Of a stretch of DNA of 64,000 nt, positions 21,639-64,000 are shown piece by piece. How positions within the stretch are numbered: position 1 is the first letter of the stretch; each line of letters opens with the position of its first letter. Source of the DNA: Pilasporangium apinafurcum (taxonomy: Eukaryota; Oomycota; Peronosporomycetes; Pythiales; Pythiaceae); NCBI GenBank assembly GCA_001600495.1, contig BCKE01000019.1, forward strand, positions 156,992 through 220,991, read 5' to 3'. The position numbers and the translations under genes were made by a program. The notes beneath the pieces were generated by a model. The model ran no database searches, was not told the origin of the DNA, and worked only from the letters and a program-made list of their open reading frames with translations.

Positions 21639-24600
21639 TTATTTTTCCCATGTACTTGGATGTCGTGCCTGTTCATCGTGCCACTCTTTGCGAAACGTAT
21701 CATAGCGATACAGACTTCGTTCCTTCCGTGAGATCTTGAGATCTGCCGCAAGTACATAACCAGCACTCGTTATTGCAATTGCATGACTCGACGTGTGAAC
21801 TGAAGAAGTGGATCGAACAGCATTTTTGCCACGTATTCCCGTACTTTTGCTTCCGGAGATGGACGACTTCGACTTTGGTAAGACATCGTCATATAGCTGT
21901 ACAGTGCACCAGATGATCACCATAGTAATTACATTACCATATTTCTCATGAACCTTCACACCAACGACACGAGCAGCAATTGTTCTCTCCCCAATAGGAT
22001 CTGAGGATGCTCCGATATTGGTAGCACTTGAAACCGAGTAAACAGACGATATTGATTTGCTAGATCGAAATGCTGATGCGCCATTGCTGATGCTTTCTTC
22101 TGTGACGACTTTTCCTGTTTCGCTACGATAGATCCGTTCACAGAAGAGAATCGTATCTCCTGCTACAATATCGCCTTCTTCACAACACTCGATGGTGAAG
22201 TTTGCAGCAGCGTTCGATGGTCGAAGGATGACTCCATTCACACGTTCCTCATCTTTCGTGAGTGTACAGAACTGAGAGACTGTCGATTGTTCACTCATTA
22301 CACCGATACGATTTACCGCAAACACACGAAGGCGATATACCGAACTCGGTACTAAATCCGACAGCATCGTCATCGAATCACTCCCTTCATACACGCGAAC
22401 CCAGTCAGTAGCAACCTTTGCGTTGTTATTGTTGTTTGCAGCTCCCTTCCTTCCCTGTTGCTCAAATGCAATCGTTTCAACGAATTTGCATTCCACCAGA
22501 TATCTGTAGGCACCATTAACACCAGGATACCAGCAGATTTGGGCACTCGAAGACAAGACGGTGATCATTCCAGCACAAGACGGCGCATTGGGCGCTGTCC
22601 AGACTTCTAACGCCTCACTTAACTGGCTTGAAGCGTGCGACGACACCAGTCGCAGTCGAAAATTGTACAACGTGTTCGCCTCCAAGCCATTGATAACAGT
22701 AATTGTTTCTTTTCCCCGGTACGATACCAAACTCATTTGATTGGAGGAGGATGATGTCACACGTGAGGATTGTTCATCATCATTGCCTCGTTTTCCATGA
22801 TCGCGCTTCAAGACGTAACATACGTCTGTCTTGTTCCACCACTTCGTAAACTCACTGAACGAAATTTTGCCATCATTATCGGTATCAAAGTCTTCCATGT
22901 ACGCCGCCAGTCGTTCTTCCGTGGGAGGGACACCTAATTCTTCTAGTAGCGTCTTGAACTCCGGTAGCTCAATGAAATTGCTTTTATCCGTGTCATACCG
23001 ATCAAATTTGGCGCGAAAATCGACAGTACCGTCGTCTAGACTGGTTTCTTGAGCCCACTCCTTTAAAATCCGTGCGATTTGGTCGTCTGTCGATGGTGCA
23101 CCACCTCCCCCACTTCGCGTAATTGCGACTTGTTTGGAACGAGCTTGTAAGGCTTCATGTGACAGACTCGGTTTTGCAGAACAGGAGCTCCATTTCAACT
23201 TCACAGAAGAACATGTGAGTACCAGTCCAGTGCTACTCGATTCGACGATAACTGGCGGTGCAGGCGTCTGTAGCAGAGTATTTACCACAACCGACTCGCT
23301 GTGGAGGCTGTACATATTTTCCTCATTATATGCCTGCACGCGAAATTGATACGTGCTCCCACTTGCAAGCCCATGCACTACAAACGAGCTCTTTGTACCG
23401 CGATAGATTTCGACATATTCACCTGTAGCTTCATTCGCGCACTGTTTGAGGATGTATCGACATTGCGAGATCCCCGTAGTCTGTCGTTTTGCTGATTTAC
23501 TTGCCGATTTGCTAGACATCGTGGCTTGCGATCCTAAAGATTTCGTAGATGCGGATAACTTTAGCGTTGAGGACGATGACTCTATTTCCGTTTTTTCATC
23601 CATAAACCCGTGGAAAAACCGCATGAACTCCTCCCATGATATGCTTTCGTTGTCATCTGTTTCGATGGCATCAAAGACACTCAGCGGAACCCCTTTTGCG
23701 CCGGATTGAGAGGATGTTACTGTCGTCTTCTGAAGAAACTCCAACAATCGCGGTTTTCGACGCTCGATTTCCTCCATGAACTCATCTCTCGAGATTTGAC
23801 CATTGCCGTCGCTATCAGCTTCTTCGAAAACTTGACGTAGTTCTCGAAGTTGTCTCCGGTAGTAGCTGGAGCTTTCCCATCCAAGGTGAATGCTATTCGG
23901 ACCAACCTTAATTGCTAGAGGTGCCGGTGGAATTGCTGGGGCTGTGAAGAAGTAGCAAAACGTGTATGGACCAGCTCCAAAGCCGTTCAATGCACGTACA
24001 CGAAAGCCATACTTGGTATTGGGTGAAAGCCCTGATACAACGTAATGGTAGCGAGGCTGGCCGTTGTTGTCCAAGTAATCTTTTGGATCCCTGTAAATTT
24101 CTCTGTATTCATTCAGTCGAAAGCTTTGTGTACCTTCCGCACCGATGGTCTCCAATTGATAAAATGCGGCGCCGTTATTTCCCGTCACTGGAGGCGGATG
24201 CCACCGTAACAAGATCATCGTGGTCGGGTCCAGTGCTTCGTCATCGTCACGAAAGAGCGTAGGAGCGTCAGGCGGCCTTCCCTCCGTCACTAGTTGCTGT
24301 AGCACCTTCTGCTCGCGCTGTTCAGCTGACCAAAGCTCTAATTTCTTGAGAAACGGAGCTGCTTGCTCATCGTTCCAAGTTGAAAATGCGCATCGTTGTG
24401 GGGCTTTCACTTTCACATCACGCATATCACACTCTGGCTGACAGTCGAATCGTGCGCTTTGCTCGCGTCGCTTGATGTGACCTGGCAATTCTGAACGCAT
24501 GCGATTACAACCCGGTTTGGTGTTGCCAATAACCAATTGGAAGGCGTTCAGCATTCCGCATTCGTGGCAAACAGTTTCCCACATGCATACTTGCTTGAGC

Positions 24601-27070
24601 AAGATGTCGGTGTCGCCATGACATTGCGTTTGGCGCTCCTCGCCGACCACATCAAGGAATTCTTTCATACTCACTTGATGATCGCCATTCGTGTCAAAGT
24701 ACTCCATCAACCGCTGCACTTCCTCAGGTTGCAGCACAACACCGAGATCCAATAGCAACTTCGTGAACTCCTTGGTGTTGAGCAATGCAAACCGTTCCAT
24801 CTGCTCCTCTTCGGTCATTTCGTCTGGTACCGAGTCGCCATCACCGCGTGCTAGTAGCTTCTTGTGTTTACGCTCGCAATGATCCAGAAAAGCCTGTTTG
24901 TAATTAATGCCTTTGCGATGCAGGAGCTTGAGAAAGATGTCGCGAATAGCTGATGATGTGCAGTGCACGTCGCACGCGATAGGTGCAAAGCTTTCCCAGA
25001 GGATTCGACATCGTGTGGCGCTTCTGTATCCATCACTCCATTTGACCCATTCATCCAAGAGTCCTCGATCAATTGCCTTGAGTGCCTTGCCTACCTCTTC
25101 CCATCGTACCGACGCAGGGACAGCACTATCATTTTCATCATTGTCTTCAGGCGTTGCCTTCGGTTTAGGAAGATGCTGCAAAAACTTGACTGCCTTGTCC
25201 CTCATAGCCTTATGAGCGACCCAGGCAGAGTAGCTTTCCTTGCTCTGCATCTGACGAAACTTGGTACTCTCTTTTATTTTCTTTAGTGTTGGGTTGTGCT
25301 CCTTCTCAAACAAATAACGATCTTTGGAGAAAGGGTTGCCATCGTCATCATCACCTCCGCGACCACTATCAAAATTCGCGCGCAAGATATGTCCTTTCTT
25401 GACGAGCACTTGCTTACACTTTTCGAGATCGCCACCGCGCCCTTGAAAGCCTTCGTTCATGGCGTGGACATATTTCAGACCACTGTCTTTCATCATTTCT
25501 ACTGCGGATGACGGCATTTTGATGTTCTTCTTGCGAACTATTCCACGTCCTGATGAGAAATCAAAACGCGTCGGCGCGCCACTTGTTGATTTTCTGACTG
25601 TACCTAGGTGACTCTTTTCCTTCTCTGGTGTCGGCAATCGAACTCGAAGTCGATCTTTTCGCTTCACCCACGCATTATGCGCGACCACGCCTCCTTCTGC
25701 TTTCTCTTTCGCCTCTTCTTTTTTTTGCTCTTCAATCGCTTCCTGGTCTTCCTCTAACCATTTCATTATTCGACCAACTCCAAGCTGATTCAAAATGTGA
25801 AGCTCCATTTCGGCTGTACTTCGATGTTGTTGTTGCTGCTGTGATTTCTTCGACATTTTTTCAGTATACTCGTTCATTTTGCTTTGTAAATGCTCGACTA
25901 CCTGGTGTTGCGCATTCATCCAATACTTTTTGCACAGACTCAGGAAGAACTATATAAGCAACACATAGGAATGACAATGATTTAATACCAACGAAAACTA
26001 ATCAAGAAAACACAAGAGAATAAATAGCATACGGCATTTTGTTTCTTTTGATCCGCAGTCAGCGCACGTCGAGCAGCAATTTTCGCAGTATCACCCTTTT
26101 GAGGCTTTGCAGCCTGATGCCACTTCAGCGTCATAAAGTAAGTCTTGTTCGCTTCGTCGAACTCCATCATCTGGCGGGTGCCATTGGAGAATTTCATGGC
26201 TTCCTCTTCAGTTAGAGGCACTTGTGAGAAGGTGTGGTACTTTGTCGTCCATTTCACCCAGAAATCGCCCAGAGATCGTACTGGACACGAACAAGGGCGT
26301 TGGATCCGCGTGCCGTCTTGGTTCTCCAGAATGCTGCACTGACTTAGTACAGCTTGCGCCATTCTTAGGGCTGCAGTAGTGATCTTCAGCGGACCACTGC
26401 CTCCTTTGATGTCGAGACTTCGGTTCTCTCCTGTCTGAACAATCAGCTCCGCTAGCTCCAGGATTGTTTGGGCTGGTTGCACTCGATACGGACTGAGCGT
26501 AGCGATCATTTTTTCCGAGATTTGCCCTGGCGTTGTGCCGATGCATCGTCGACAGAGCGAACATTTCTTGGCAGGACATTGGCAGCGCGTGCGTTGCTTC
26601 GTGACTGAATGAGAAATGTCACGGCAGACGCCTGCGCAATCACATTTTTCAGATTTTCCCGTTTTCAACAGACAGTCCGTGGCGGCTAGCGAGACAGCAA
26701 CTTCAAGCCACTTATCGTCATCGGCCGCGCGTTCAGTGTTTAATTGAGTGAGCGCGCGCGCGATCCGTTCGTACTTATCTTTCCGTGCTACCCAAATGTC
26801 AAATTCGATTTTTTTACCGCCGGCAGGTTGCTGTTTGCTCGTTGCTTTGCCCGTAGTCTGATTGTATACGCCCTGTTGAGGATGAGATGATGGTAAAACT
26901 TCCGTCGTTCGCTTTGTATCGAACGACAGAACGCCTTGCCTAATGCCTTCGTTCTCGTCTTCATCAAAGGCATTATTTTCATAAAGGTCATCAACATTGT
27001 CAAGTGTCGAAATTGGCAAACGCATCGAATGCTGCTTCATCGATGAACGGGAGCGATCGTCAATTGCCAT
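21639..27070 (-). CDS. Very large EF-hand and fibronectin type III repeat protein
   Basis: Two exons, 26033-27070 and 21639-25949, joined in phase (GCC|GTATGC to TATATAG|TTCTTC), giving about 1,780 aa. Exon 1 (MAIDDRSRSS) holds a Cys cluster (RCQCPAKKCSLCRRC). Exon 2 has FN3-like modules (for example PNTKYGFRVRALNGFGAGPY and GSTYQFRVQAYNEENMYS) interleaved with EF-hands: FDTNGDHQVSMKEFLD, EADSDGNGQISRDEFME, IETDDNESISWEEFMRF, YDTDKSNFIELPEFKTL and DFDTDNDGKISFSEFTKW. All carry canonical Ca-ligand spacing. No signal peptide or membrane segment is obvious, so an intracellular calcium-responsive scaffold is my inference. The function is not known to me. Confidence 0.85.
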
Positions 27071-60338: not shown

Positions 60339-60579
60339 TCTTCTTCCGCGATTCCTCCTTCCTCGGTTTCTATGAGGTCTACTATTGGACAGCTCTGGTC
60401 CATTGTTGCCGTCGACCAACACTCTATACGAAAATGATGGTCATTGGTAATTGACAATCTCATGTATTCAAGTTTATTTCCTCAATGAACCAATTTTGCT
60501 CCGTGCACTAACAATACAAATCTGTTCACTTCTTTCTACTCTATCCAAAGCATTGGGTTCGATAGAAGTCTCGTTATTT

Positions 60580-61134
60580 TTACAGCATCAATGCAACGAC
60601 GGATCCCGTAAGAACAACAGCAGCAGAGCTGACTGTCACAACCACACTACCTGATGTTGTAGGCGCCGGTGTTGTGATTTCTTCCGAGCTAAGGGAGGAC
60701 GAACCANTTCCGACCTCACTTCCTGCACTCGTAACTTCACCTTCTGTCGATCCAGAACTGCTCGAAGAAACTTCAATATCGCTTGTAGCTGAGGAAGAGC
60801 CTGTCGAAACACTGGTGGTGTCGATTCCACAGATGTTGGTAACGTAGTAGACCAGATCCTCTAGCAGACTGATATGGTCGCCGAGAGGAATGGTACATTC
60901 CGTTGGATTCAATGCCAAGACCGTCGTGAGCACCGACTGACACGCAGTAGACGAGCACATGGCTTCGGCTTCCGTTTCCGTTGGTTGGACACCTGTCGTA
61001 AAGTCATATCCCGAGTCTGTACCGCATTGAGTGAGATTGGGATCCGCGAGCACTGAGGCGAGAGTGGTTGTGTCACAATCAGCAGCACGGACGACGGCAA
61101 AAGTAGCGGTGAGAGCAAGAGCGAGAACCTTCAT
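60580..61134 (-). CDS. Elicitin, Ser/Thr-rich C-terminus with hydrophobic tail
   Basis: Single exon, 184 aa, starting MKVLALALTATFAVVRAAD, a signal peptide. The elicitin domain (about residues 20-115) has six Cys in the family pattern (ADCDTT, QCGTDSGYDF, MCSSTACQSV, NPTECTIPL, NICGID). Elicitins bind sterols and are oomycete-specific. A Ser/Thr/Gly-rich region follows and the protein ends in a hydrophobic stretch (VVVTVSSAAVVLTGSVVALM), consistent with a GPI-anchor signal. An N at 60707 leaves one residue open. Signal peptide, domain and 5' flank are nearly identical to the kinase fusion gene at 62441-63946. Confidence 0.93.
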   Translation of the reverse strand: MKVLALALTATFAVVRAADCDTTTLASVLADPNLTQCGTDSGYDFTTGVQPTETEAEAMCSSTACQSVLTTVLALNPTECTIPLGDHISLLEDLVYYVTNICGIDTTSVSTGSSSATSDIEVSSSSSGSTEGEVTSAGSEVGXGSSSLSSEEITTPAPTTSGSVVVTVSSAAVVLTGSVVALML

Positions 61135-61190
61135 GATGACTTGTAAGAAAAGAGAAAGAGTGTGGGCTTGTTTGAATCTTGTTGTGGAAG
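61135..61190 (-). promoter_or_regulatory. 5' flank shared by elicitin and elicitin-kinase genes
   Basis: About 54 bp upstream of the elicitin ATG is the same as upstream of the kinase gene (63947-64000), for example GATGACTTGTAAGAAAAGAG read on the plus strand. The identity reaches the window edge, so its true extent is unknown. The two genes probably share 5' leader and promoter. Confidence 0.75.
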
Positions 61191-61336
61191 AAGCAAATTG
61201 GATGATGAAAGTAAAAGNAAGAACACGATGTTGTTGCTTTGGTATATGCGGAAGAGGCATGTAGCGGAACAGAGTCAACGTCTTCGATCAGATTGATGTT
61301 GAACTTTGTGTGAGTGGAAGAGAGAGAGAGAGTAAG

Positions 61337-61510
61337 ACTCTCTTCACTGCAAGTTCGTTCCTGATAGAGATGTCAACGCTGCCAGGAACATCTTTCCCAA
61401 GAATGAACACTTACTCTCCTGGATTCAGCGAATTTAGGTGCTGGAGATGCCTACTCCGCGGTTATTTAGTCTTAACTAGCTTTTATTAGTCAAGTCGGAC
61501 CCAAAGAAAA
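61337..61510 (+). pseudogene. TnpB-like family 2 remnant, copy b
   Basis: A 5'-truncated 3' end of the family 2 element. It starts within the zinc ribbon (HCKFVPDRD) and continues DRDVNAARNIFPKNEHLLSW, then a stop. The 3' end aligns with copy a, including ACTCCGCGGTTATTTAGTC, a GCTTTTATTAGTCAAGTCGG block and an AAAGAAAAAATAG end. It lies 203 bp upstream of the elicitin start codon, in its promoter region, in opposite orientation to copy a. Confidence 0.75.
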
Positions 61511-61778
61511 AATAGAAGGTCATCCCTGAGTTACTAGTGGCTCATATGATTTCTTGAGGTTAAAACCCATGATGCCTGTTCCATTCTCGCGACAGTTGCT
61601 ACCGAGCTGACTCAAGGCTTTACATTGGTCCAATGTTGATCTGAATTTGGTGCGCAGAAAATGATCATGGAGAAGATGACGGATTCCACATTAGATGTGG
61701 TGAGTGTACAATTAACCGTTATTATTTGGGGTCCGACTTAACTAACAAAAGCTAGCTTAGACTAGACACGGCGGAGTA

Positions 61779-61812
61779 GGTGTCTCCGACACCTGGACTC
61801 GATGAGTCCAGG
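61779..61812 (-). ncRNA. Candidate 3'-end guide-RNA double hairpin, family 2 copy a
   Basis: Two adjoining hairpins: CCTGGACTC/GAGTCCAGG (9 bp, 3-base loop, 61792-61812) and GGTGTC/GACACC (6 bp, 3-base loop, 61779-61793), overlapping by two bases. Copy b (61418-61438) keeps the 9-bp stem in RNA despite three changed positions, one of them C-G to U-A and two G-C to G-U. It lies where TnpB elements encode guide RNA. The RNA role is inference. Confidence 0.5.
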
Positions 61813-62189
61813 AGAGTAGGTGGTTATTCTTAAGAAAGATGTTCCTCGTAGCATTGATATCCCTATCGAGAACGAGCTTGCAGTGAGAACAGTCAAAGAT
61901 TTTTTGGTGCTTCATATTATGGTTGATTCTCCCACACTGAGAACAAGTCTTTGTTGTAAAGTGTTCCTTACAGTCGTATCTGTGATCTTTGCCTCCCTTT
62001 CGCACCGATACTACCGTGTCACATTTTCTGGACAGTCACTTTGATTCTCCACGCACTCGATCTCCTCGAGCATGCACTGTCATCGCTTCGCATCCGTTCT
62101 TGAAAAGAAGAATGGCGCTCATTGCGGAGAATTGGAAACAAGTTTCTGCTTCTATCGATAGAGAGGAAAAAATACGCCAAAGTATATCC

Positions 62190-62222
62190 CACCGGTGGGA
62201 GAAGTGGGGGAATAAAGGTTAA
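62190..62222. repeat. Half palindromic unit with TTAACCTTTATTCCCC motif
   Basis: CCCACCGGTGGG palindrome (62189-62200) followed by GGGGGAATAAAGGTTAAG, the reverse complement of the outer arm of palindromic units 1 and 2. No left arm found. Confidence 0.5.
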
Positions 62223-62440
62223 GTAGGATTTCTTAGTCGATCGTTGATGAGAAACTGATGTTTGCTTAATATTGTTTTAATTACGAGAAATGGCAAATCT
62301 TCGAATTGGAGGCGGCATTTCGTTCTGCGGTCACATACACTGAAACAACATTGATACTTTCCTTTGTACCGATACCGATGAAAACGAATATGCTTATCAT
62401 CACTCAAGCATGGCTAATACCCAAGTAGCGACTACACCTT

Positions 62441-63946
62441 TCAAAAGAGAATTCGTTGAACAGTACGCATCGTGTACGCAACCTGTGGTGCAGTTGGTCG
62501 GTCTTCAGGGCGGTGGGCCAAGCAGCGATTCGCCAATGAGAGAATTTCTGGTAGACAGGAACTGCGGAAGGTTGGTCGAAGACTTCCTGCCGCGACCATT
62601 TGCAAAATAACAGCATCCGGCAATGTATTGCCATTCGCACCTTGAGCATCTGCGTATGGCACACGATGGGTGTCCAATTCGGATAGCAACACACCAAACG
62701 AGTAAATATCCACTGCCTGGCCGTAATCATTACTACCCGAAATCACCTCCGGCGCCAGCCATCGACTGGTACCGACACCAGCCACCATCGTATTGTCCAC
62801 GGAGCGAAACTGCGACACTCCAAAGTCAGTGAGCTTGCCCCTCATATCCTCAGACAAGAGCACATTGCGGGACTTGAGGTCGCGATGTACTAGAGGTGGC
62901 TGGAACGAATGTATATACACCAATGCTTCAACCACATCGATGGCGATCTGAATTTTCTCTCGGTTCCATTCGCGCGGCGTGCTCGCTTCAACCAAGTATT
63001 CGTGTAAATCACCGTTCTTCATGTACTCAAACAGCGCTTGCAAATCGCTCTCCATGGTCCAAGCGACACCAATAAGTTTCACGATGTTTGGGTGGTCAAA
63101 TTTTGCCACCAATTTGATCTCATCCACAAAACCCTGCGTGCGTTCACGGGTAACGCGATCTTTTTGGATCCGCTTAGACGCTAGTAATTGCGTATTCCGA
63201 TACTTGACGAGCCATACGACACCATACGCACCATTACCGATCTTCATAATATCCTGAATGTGCTCTGCACTCATTTGAAGCGCAAGCAATTCCGGATCAT
63301 TCCAAAGTGATCCAGTATTGTCGTGCTCCTGTTTATTAGCTTTAGAATTGGTAGAACTGGATGGGCTTTGCGCTGTATGGCTGGCATACGAAGCGGATGT
63401 CTCAATAGTGTCGGTGTTACTTGTGAAATTGTTTCTATATCGCTGATCACGGTAGCGCAAGGATATAAGGGCAATTACAAGGATAAGAAAGATTACATCA
63501 ACAATGATGAACGCAATGCTGATGGATCCACCGCCGATGCCACTAGACAAATCGCTGGTGCTCGCCAAAGGGGTTGCCGAAGGGGTTGCGGAAGGGGCTG
63601 TCGAAGGGGCTGTCGAAGTACTGGCGGTGGTGTCGATACCGCAAATATTGGCAACATAGTAGAACAGATCCTCTAGCAGACTGATACGGCCGCCAACAGG
63701 GATGGTACATTCCGTTGGATTCAATGCCAAGACCGTCGTGAGCACCGACTGACACGCAGTAGACGAGCACATGGCTTCGGCTTCCATTTTTGTTGGGTGC
63801 ATACCTGACGTAAAGTCATATCCCGAGTCTGTACCGCATTGGCCGAGATTGGGATCCGCGAGCACTGAGGCGAGAGTGGTTGTGTCGCAAACAGCAGCAC
63901 GGACAACGGCAAAAGTAGCGGTGAGAGCAAGAGCGAGAACCTTCAT
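62441..63946 (-). CDS. Elicitin-domain receptor-like protein kinase
   Basis: Single exon, 501 aa. Residues 1-20 are a signal peptide (MKVLALALTATFAVVRAA). About 20-115 form a complete six-Cys elicitin domain (VCDTT, QCGTDSGYDF, MCSSTACQSV, NPTECTIPVG, NICGID). A Ser/Thr/Pro linker (STAPSTAPSATPSATP) leads to one membrane helix (SISIAFIIVDVIFLILVIAL), then a basic stop-transfer RYRDQRYRNN. The cytosolic kinase has GNGAYG, the Lys in LLASKRIQK, HRDLKSRN, DFGVS, APEV and a final Arg in RPEDRPTA, so it looks active. It resembles the TKL class. Elicitins bind sterols, so a lipid-sensing receptor is a natural inference. Ectodomain nearly identical to the adjacent elicitin. Confidence 0.93.
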   Translation of the reverse strand: MKVLALALTATFAVVRAAVCDTTTLASVLADPNLGQCGTDSGYDFTSGMHPTKMEAEAMCSSTACQSVLTTVLALNPTECTIPVGGRISLLEDLFYYVANICGIDTTASTSTAPSTAPSATPSATPLASTSDLSSGIGGGSISIAFIIVDVIFLILVIALISLRYRDQRYRNNFTSNTDTIETSASYASHTAQSPSSSTNSKANKQEHDNTGSLWNDPELLALQMSAEHIQDIMKIGNGAYGVVWLVKYRNTQLLASKRIQKDRVTRERTQGFVDEIKLVAKFDHPNIVKLIGVAWTMESDLQALFEYMKNGDLHEYLVEASTPREWNREKIQIAIDVVEALVYIHSFQPPLVHRDLKSRNVLLSEDMRGKLTDFGVSQFRSVDNTMVAGVGTSRWLAPEVISGSNDYGQAVDIYSFGVLLSELDTHRVPYADAQGANGNTLPDAVILQMVAAGSLRPTFRSSCLPEILSLANRCLAHRPEDRPTAPQVAYTMRTVQRILF

Positions 63947-64000
63947 GATGACTTGTAAGAAAAGAGAAAGAGTGTGGGCTTGTTTGAATCTTGTTGTGGA
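63947..64000 (-). promoter_or_regulatory. 5' flank of elicitin-kinase gene, shared with elicitin gene
   Basis: Same sequence as 61135-61188. It continues past the window edge. Confidence 0.75.

What the first reader, a model, noticed from the sequence alone, without database searches (positions are those of the whole stretch)
62441..63946. Elicitin ectodomain fused to a complete receptor-like kinase
A six-Cys elicitin domain, one membrane helix and a kinase with all catalytic motifs are in one exon. Elicitins carry sterols, and many oomycetes cannot make sterols, so a membrane sterol- or lipid-sensing kinase of the organism itself is an attractive hypothesis. Oomycete RLKs are known in kinome surveys; I cannot say whether this exact fusion is described.
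Basis: partly seen in the sequence, partly recalled or inferred. Interest (0 to 1): 0.78.

Follow-up and report, generated by a model that had tools for sequence, protein, structure and literature searches.

The report
Elicitin-kinase chimeric receptor of an oomycete
A water-mould gene joins a lipid-carrier-like protein (an elicitin) to a membrane kinase in one chain; it looks like a join of two known kinds of gene, one with a close relative right next door and one with a close relative on another contig, and it resembles in one molecule a sterol-sensing pair that a related mould makes from two proteins.

Summary
One uninterrupted 501-codon frame (62441-63946, minus) encodes a signal peptide, a six-Cys elicitin domain, one membrane helix and a protein kinase. 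Both parent lineages can be named at DNA level. The 5' half (leader, signal peptide, elicitin, start of linker) is 91.6% identical to the neighbouring solo, GPI-type elicitin gene. The 3' half (linker, membrane helix, kinase, 214 bases past the stop) is 84.3% identical to an intron-containing LRR receptor-kinase gene on other contigs. The join is confined to about 32 bases of a Ser/Thr linker. The architecture occurs once more in this genome, in two Pythium insidiosum proteins and in two unnamed JGI proteins; kinase data reject one clade for all six, so such receptors probably arose repeatedly. My searches found no paper describing the fusion. In Phytophthora sojae a receptor kinase (SSRK1) senses sterol with separate elicitins, so a single-chain version is plausible. 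It is not shown: ligand and transcript are untested, an almost invariant activation-loop Thr is Val here, and two conserved elicitin positions are changed. No oxidosqualene cyclase was found in the genome, consistent with sterol auxotrophy. An assembly gap starts 54 bases upstream of the ATG, so the promoter is unseen.

The parts
62441..63946 (-). Elicitin - membrane helix - kinase fusion gene, 501 codons, one exon
63947..64000 (-). 5' leader, 54 of 54 bases identical to the leader of the solo elicitin; a 1635-base N gap follows directly past 64000
   Evidence: first mismatch at base 96 counted from 64000
63893..63946 (-). Signal peptide, residues 1-18 (boundary by inspection)
   Evidence: no amino-acid difference from the solo elicitin
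63641..63889 (-). Elicitin domain, residues 20-102, six Cys
   Evidence: PF00964, 74.2 bits; sequence match to cryptogein and cinnamomin; structure, modest model
63527..63640 (-). Ser/Thr/Pro/Ala-rich linker, residues 103-140, with 12-base repeats
63565..63596 (-). Interval that contains the join: elicitin-side homology ends at 63597, LRR-receptor-kinase-side homology begins at 63564
   Evidence: blastn
63461..63523 (-). Single membrane helix, about residues 142-162, followed by basic residues
   Evidence: hydropathy mean 3.18 over 19 residues
62480..63253 (-). Protein kinase domain, residues 232-489, TKL type by its relatives' names, catalytic residues intact
62783..62785 (-). Codon 388: Val where 66 of 67 aligned kinases have Thr (activation segment); R379Q lies just before it
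62227..62440 (-). 3' flank still homologous to the LRR receptor-kinase gene (with a further piece at 61650-61713)
60580..61134 (-). Solo elicitin gene, 184 aa, with a hydrophobic GPI-signal-like C-terminus (by hydropathy only): nearest relative of the 5' half
61336..61505 (.). Copy of a dispersed repeat, inverted relative to the next one
61726..61894 (.). Second, inverted copy of the dispersed repeat, between the two elicitin genes

Best explanation
Shown by sequence: this is a chimeric receptor-like kinase gene. The 5' part of a GPI-anchored-type elicitin gene, of which the sister copy sits 1.3 kb downstream, is joined inside Ser/Thr-linker coding sequence to the last exon of an LRR-receptor-kinase-type gene, in place of that receptor's LRR ectodomain and of the elicitin's GPI-type tail. 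Inferred: the protein sits in the plasma membrane with the elicitin outside. It most likely works as a single-chain lipid- (most plausibly sterol-) responsive receptor or co-receptor: a lipid held by the elicitin changes association with other receptor kinases or with itself and so changes activity of the kinase, the job that P. sojae divides between free elicitins and SSRK1. Because of T388V, signalling through a partner kinase is at least as likely as autonomous activation.
For: Single open frame with both domains over curated cut-offs. Two-parent DNA anatomy with a bounded breakpoint. The LRR parent has LRR exons separated by introns (by inspection) that score 63 bits as LRR_4 when set together. 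Kinase half: dN 0.069, dS 0.282, ratio 0.24; elicitin half: dN 0.060, dS 0.154, ratio 0.39. Kinase tree places it with the LRR receptor kinase L020 at 100/97, elicitin tree with the solo elicitin at 100/99. Same architecture in 4 of 120 listed database relatives and in one more own-genome gene. SSRK1-elicitin precedent (passages). No oxidosqualene cyclase match, and the one squalene-epoxidase-family match is a UbiH/COQ6-family hydroxylase.
Against: No transcript, localisation or ligand data. T388V and R379Q in the activation segment. D86G and V95F at elicitin positions that are D/E and V/I/L in 13 of 13 near elicitins (printed there one number higher). The fused elicitin shows more unique changes than the solo with all five outgroups (8:1, 4:1, 5:2, 5:2, 4:1), but only one comparison passes chi-square 3.84. 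The pairwise dN/dS values average both branches, so constraint on the fusion branch alone is not shown. The control genomes named in the cyclase answers are prokaryotes, so the absence is not calibrated on a eukaryote.
Confidence: 0.5

Rival explanations
1. A young chimera without an autonomous signalling role: weakly active, dominant-negative or on its way to decay.
For: Loss of an activation-loop Thr found in 66 of 67 kinases, R379Q; more unique changes in the fused elicitin than in the solo, over chi-square 3.84 in one of five comparisons; promoter side lies in an assembly gap.
Against: The 501-codon frame is intact, catalytic residues intact, pairwise dN/dS 0.24 and 0.39. The kinase branch is not clearly accelerated: unique changes window:L020 17:12, 19:7, 15:11, 13:15, 19:8 against five outgroups, two of five over chi-square 3.84.
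Confidence: 0.25
2. A receptor whose elicitin ectodomain binds a protein partner or a non-sterol lipid rather than a sterol.
For: Low identity to cryptogein (34% over 88 columns with a modest model); D86G and V95F. A V84F change in a P. sojae elicitin abolishes sterol binding, so a bulky residue in the same helix could matter; the helix register is my own count.
Against: The position that I align with V84 is Leu in both the fusion and the solo (count made with recalled cryptogein letters beyond residue 81), so the core position stays aliphatic.
Confidence: 0.2
3. An assembly chimera of an elicitin contig end and a receptor-kinase contig end.
For: A 1635-base gap begins 54 bases upstream; a 755-base, 99.87% identical inverted copy of the solo elicitin region lies at C19:235937-236691, with its two single N at the same places; contigs C78 and C101 seem to overlap without being merged.
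Against: The junction lies in about 2.8 kb without N (61219 to 64000); frame kept across it; the elicitin half differs from the solo by 8% and the kinase half from L020 by 16%, so unseen parents would be needed for both; the architecture recurs elsewhere.
Confidence: 0.05

Closest known systems
SSRK1-elicitin sterol-sensing complex of Phytophthora sojae (Pei et al. 2024, not held; seen only as described in passages of PMC12662980 and PMC12223298)
   Same: A receptor-like kinase and an elicitin act together at the membrane; a putative SSRK1 homologue, PPTG_09207, is listed among LRR receptor kinases, the class from which the kinase half here descends.
   Different: There the elicitin is a separate secreted protein; here it is the ectodomain of the kinase chain and no LRR remains. 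Orthology with SSRK1 and sterol response not tested.
Oomycete LRR receptor-like kinases (e.g. PsRLK6, passages of PMC10390575; TKL 'Oomycete Subfamily 4', passages of PMC3019232; assignment to that subfamily not tested)
   Same: Membrane helix and TKL kinase; sister gene L020/L021 is an LRR receptor kinase, 86% identical over 293 kinase columns.
   Different: Elicitin in place of the LRR; single exon; T388V.
GPI-anchored-type elicitins / elicitin-like proteins
   Same: Signal peptide, six Cys, Ser/Thr-rich linker; 91.6% DNA identity to the adjacent gene.
   Different: GPI-type tail replaced by membrane helix and kinase.
Elicitin-kinase proteins P0007 and P0032 of Pythium insidiosum (hypothetical proteins), P0060 and P0079 (unnamed JGI records on contigs of 2.9 and 2.7 kb), own-genome C78:13373-15103
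   Same: Elicitin, linker, membrane helix, kinase.
   Different: Their kinases lie on other branches and keep the activation-loop Thr; P0007 and P0032 as annotated start without a clear signal peptide, by eye.

Membership tests
Elicitin (PF00964) | Curated profile score | tested here: met
   74.2 bits against cut-off 25
Elicitin (PF00964) | Six conserved Cys | tested here: met
   Cys 20, 37, 60, 65, 80, 102
Elicitin (PF00964) | All-helical elicitin fold | tested here: inconclusive
   Model mean pLDDT 66; the five best of ten PDB matches are elicitins (cryptogein 1beo E 1.1e-3, TM 0.59/0.65), but none of the ten has E <= 0.001
Elicitin (PF00964) | Sterol binding | not testable with these tools
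   Pocket position V84 appears as Leu by a count from the last Cys with recalled cryptogein letters; V95F and D86G noted
Oomycete LRR receptor-like kinase | Kinase with catalytic residues and one membrane helix | tested here: met
Oomycete LRR receptor-like kinase | LRR ectodomain | tested here: not met
   Only Elicitin and kinase families match at E <= 0.001
Oomycete LRR receptor-like kinase | Activation-loop Thr shared by relatives | tested here: not met
   V388; T in 66 of 67
SSRK1-elicitin sterol receptor | SSRK1 orthology | not tested
   SSRK1 sequence not identified among fetched proteins; PNAS paper not held
SSRK1-elicitin sterol receptor | Sterol-induced Ca2+ and MAPK response | not testable with these tools
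   Needs living cells
SSRK1-elicitin sterol receptor | Sterol-auxotrophic organism | tested here: inconclusive
   No oxidosqualene cyclase match (PF13243, PF13249); squalene-epoxidase-family match is a UbiH/COQ6-family hydroxylase; control genomes named in the answers are prokaryotes

The most novel reading that the evidence does not exclude
Elicitin receptor kinases are a recurrently evolved class of single-chain lipid receptors in oomycetes, so far seen in Pythium insidiosum, this genome and unnamed records: natural cis versions of the SSRK1-elicitin sterol sensor, made at least three times by putting an elicitin in place of the LRR ectodomain of a receptor kinase.
Probability: 0.3. Interest if true: 0.8.

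Novelty: new variant of a known kind. Interest (0 to 1): 0.6.

Why it matters
Oomycetes that cannot make sterols must sense and take them up, and a receptor kinase acting with separate elicitins was reported in 2024 (as cited in papers seen here). A set of genes in which nature has joined the two kinds of partner would give independent, evolutionary support that they belong to one pathway, and offers a one-protein handle to test what an elicitin signals to its own cell. The window gene also catches a receptor ectodomain swap with close relatives of both parents still present in the genome and the join mapped to about 32 bases.

Tried and rejected
Searching the elicitin part alone in the protein database gave nothing twice: residues 1-215 (7994 candidates scored, none at E <= 0.001) and 1-106 (690 candidates, none at E <= 0.01). 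This is odd, since the full-length search lists four elicitin-kinase proteins; I take it as a limit of that search and not as evidence that relatives are absent.

A full-length AlphaFold model was poor (mean pLDDT 42.8) and was not used. The ectodomain model is modest (66.1) and is used only to say that its nearest solved folds are elicitins.

The squalene-epoxidase-family match looked like evidence against auxotrophy; family scans show a UbiH/COQ6-family hydroxylase (TIGR01988 over its cut-off, the narrower COQ6 model TIGR01989 below its cut-off). The SQS_PSY match was not followed up.

A six-Cys pattern scan found the elicitin pattern in 2 of 30 own-genome kinase loci (L019, the window gene, and L030) but in only 1 of the 4 database proteins that Pfam marks as elicitin, so it undercounts and I do not use it as a census.

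One common origin of all elicitin-kinase genes was considered: the kinase data reject it (AU p 8.7e-5 for all six; 2.8e-5 for window plus L030). The elicitin data reject it for all six only weakly (p 0.031) and do not reject window plus L030 (p 0.11) or L030 plus P0060 plus P0079 (p 0.41). For the last three the kinase data are borderline (p 0.048). The test groups were set by architecture, but the smaller sets were chosen after seeing the first tree. In the elicitin tree the C78 elicitin went unlabelled through a naming slip; labels it.

The difference in synonymous divergence between the halves (12 of 83 against 49 of 208 sites, rounded) is not significant (Fisher p 0.11), so I draw no timing from it.

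Literature searches for the fusion: (full lists in 8, 27, 28, 61 and 66; none found in 62; only 25 of 47 listed in 23, 20 of 285, 10 of 7,301). No title or abstract start listed, and no passage read, describes it; the library lacks most subscription papers.

Full report
WHAT IS THERE. On the minus strand, 62441-63946, one exon encodes 501 residues. Pfam finds Elicitin at 20-102 (74.2 bits, cut-off 25) and a protein kinase at 232-489 (179.7 bits, cut-off 31.7). Six Cys lie in the elicitin part, a strongly hydrophobic stretch starts at about 142, and the glycine loop, the lysine at 258, HRDLKSRN, DFG and APE are present. Among PDB sequences the kinase scores best against CTR1, then TNNI3K and others; the ectodomain matches cryptogein, cinnamomin and sylvaticin, and a modest model of it has elicitins as its five best structural matches. 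The window is part of an unnamed 36.5 Mb assembly of 136 contigs. The best named relatives of the protein are from Globisporangium, Phytophthora and other oomycetes, so I take it to be an oomycete; I could not name the species.

TWO PARENTS. Read from 64000 downwards, bases 64000-63597 match the neighbouring solo elicitin region 61188-60788 at 91.6%; the first 95 bases, which include the 54-base leader, are identical. Bases 63564-62227 match L020/L021 (C78:2166-3377 and C101:51591-52802, apparently the same gene on two overlapping contigs) at 84.3%, running 214 bases past the stop codon, with a further 64-base piece at 61713-61650. The solo gene ends in a hydrophobic GPI-signal-like tail (hydropathy only). 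L020 has a Cys-containing first exon and several short LRR exons with introns (by inspection) before a last exon that carries linker, membrane helix and kinase; its LRR exons set together score 63 bits as LRR_4. The join therefore lies inside about 32 bases of Ser/Thr-linker coding sequence and within the last exon, not at an intron. Both parent sequences contain TTCGAC near the join, so recombination at a short shared word is a possible route; that is inference.

CONSTRAINT AND CHANGE. Pairwise estimates are dN 0.060 and dS 0.154 for the elicitin (105 codons) and dN 0.069 and dS 0.282 for the kinase part (288 codons); nine other own-genome kinases compared with it have dS of 2.0 or more or saturated. 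Both halves are thus diverged from their nearest relative, yet conserved in protein, averaged over both branches. Against a simple working-receptor reading, T388 in the activation segment is Val here alone among 67 aligned kinases, and R379 is Gln where 64 of 67 have Arg. In the elicitin, D86 and V95 (my numbering; printed one higher) have become Gly and Phe at positions that are D/E and V/I/L in 13 of 13 other near elicitins. Relative-rate counts lean towards faster change of the fused elicitin, but only one of five comparisons passes chi-square 3.84; for the kinase two of five do.

HOW WIDESPREAD. Of 687 proteins with E <= 0.001, 120 were listed and 4 of these 120 carry PF00964: P0007 and P0032 from Pythium insidiosum, P0060 and P0079 from unnamed JGI records. 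No listed row named Phytophthora, Peronospora, Plasmopara, Bremia, Hyaloperonospora, Nothophytophthora or Globisporangium does; the 567 unlisted were not seen. In this genome 50 elicitin matches and 91 matches to the whole fusion protein were found, lower bounds. Elicitin and kinase matches start within 3 kb of each other at three places: this locus, C78 (a second, 576-residue elicitin kinase) and C1, where they are separate and on opposite strands (which used 79 of the 91; the 12 left out were elicitin-part matches). In a tree of 67 kinases the six elicitin kinases need four changes of label, starred branches force at least three, and 0% of 200 bootstrap trees have one. The tree used 38 of the 120 listed database proteins and 28 of the 30 own-genome kinase loci (L019, the window gene itself, entered as the window row; L021 dropped as a copy of L020). 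The AU test rejects one clade for all six (p 8.7e-5) and for the window gene with the C78 gene (p 2.8e-5). The elicitin tree of 42 rows agrees that the window elicitin belongs with the solo gene (100/99), but its tests are weaker (p 0.031 for all six, 0.11 for window plus C78). That tree holds part of this genome's elicitins plus four outside proteins. Counts of changes cannot tell gain from loss; for the window gene the DNA anatomy favours a separate join.

COULD IT BE AN ARTEFACT. A 1635-base N gap starts right after 64000, 54 bases before the ATG. A 755-base, 99.87% identical inverted copy of the solo region lies at C19:235937-236691 with single N at the same two places, so the assembly here has near-identical repeats. 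Still, the junction is inside sequence without N from 61219 to 64000, the frame is kept, and both halves differ clearly from the copies seen elsewhere.

MECHANISM. In passages of PMC12662980, P. sojae senses host sterol through SSRK1 with elicitins: sterol-delivering SOJ5 promotes SSRK1-elicitin complexes and signalling (Ca2+ influx, MAPK activation), and V84F in the sterol pocket abolishes sterol binding and makes a competitor. PMC12223298 names PPTG_09207 as a putative SSRK1 homologue and lists it among LRR receptor kinases. The window gene puts an elicitin and an LRR-receptor-kinase-derived kinase into one chain. The genome has no match for either half of oxidosqualene cyclase, which fits sterol auxotrophy; the control genomes named in those answers are prokaryotes. 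My best reading is a single-chain lipid-responsive receptor or co-receptor, with T388V making dependence on a partner kinase likely. Steps shown by sequence: gene structure, parentage, recurrence of the architecture. Steps inferred: expression, topology, ligand, signalling.

LITERATURE. The P. infestans kinome paper (PMC3019232; 12 of 21 passages shown) has no occurrence of 'elicitin' in its main text and describes oomycete receptor kinases with LRR or short ectodomains. Passages read in PMC3681718, PMC5795050, PMC10390855 and PMC3091767 and in PMC10390575 describe no elicitin kinase. Searches gave no paper on the fusion as far as their listings and the passages read show. The library is incomplete and some listings were cut, so this is not proof that it is undescribed.

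VERDICT. Confirmed observation, new variant of a known kind, mechanism plausible but untested.

Noticed in passing
window 61336-61505 and 61726-61894: Two inverted copies of a dispersed repeat of about 188 bases lie between the solo elicitin and the fusion; about 40 places in the genome were scored (of 596 candidates), most matching on both strands.
   Followed up: partly
window 60578-61332 and C19:235937-236691 (L010:9037-9791): The solo elicitin region has a 99.87% identical inverted copy about 18 kb away with single N at the same two places: a recent inverted duplication or an assembly effect.
   Followed up: partly
L011:4374-6104 (C78:13373-15103): A second elicitin kinase, 576 aa, inside a cluster of receptor kinases, with the conserved activation-loop Thr kept.
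   Followed up: partly
C1:1030666-1030908 and C1:1031687-1032628 (L043): An elicitin gene and a receptor-like kinase stand less than 1 kb apart on opposite strands.
   Followed up: no
C101:24644-52802 and C78:2166-42840: A large receptor-kinase cluster on two contigs whose ends seem to overlap (L020 and L021 hold what looks like the same gene).
   Followed up: partly
P0060 and P0079: These two elicitin kinases carry an insert just after the catalytic loop that is absent from the window kinase.
   Followed up: no
window 21639-25919: 1426-aa frame with EF-hand pairs and fibronectin type III domains together.
   Followed up: no
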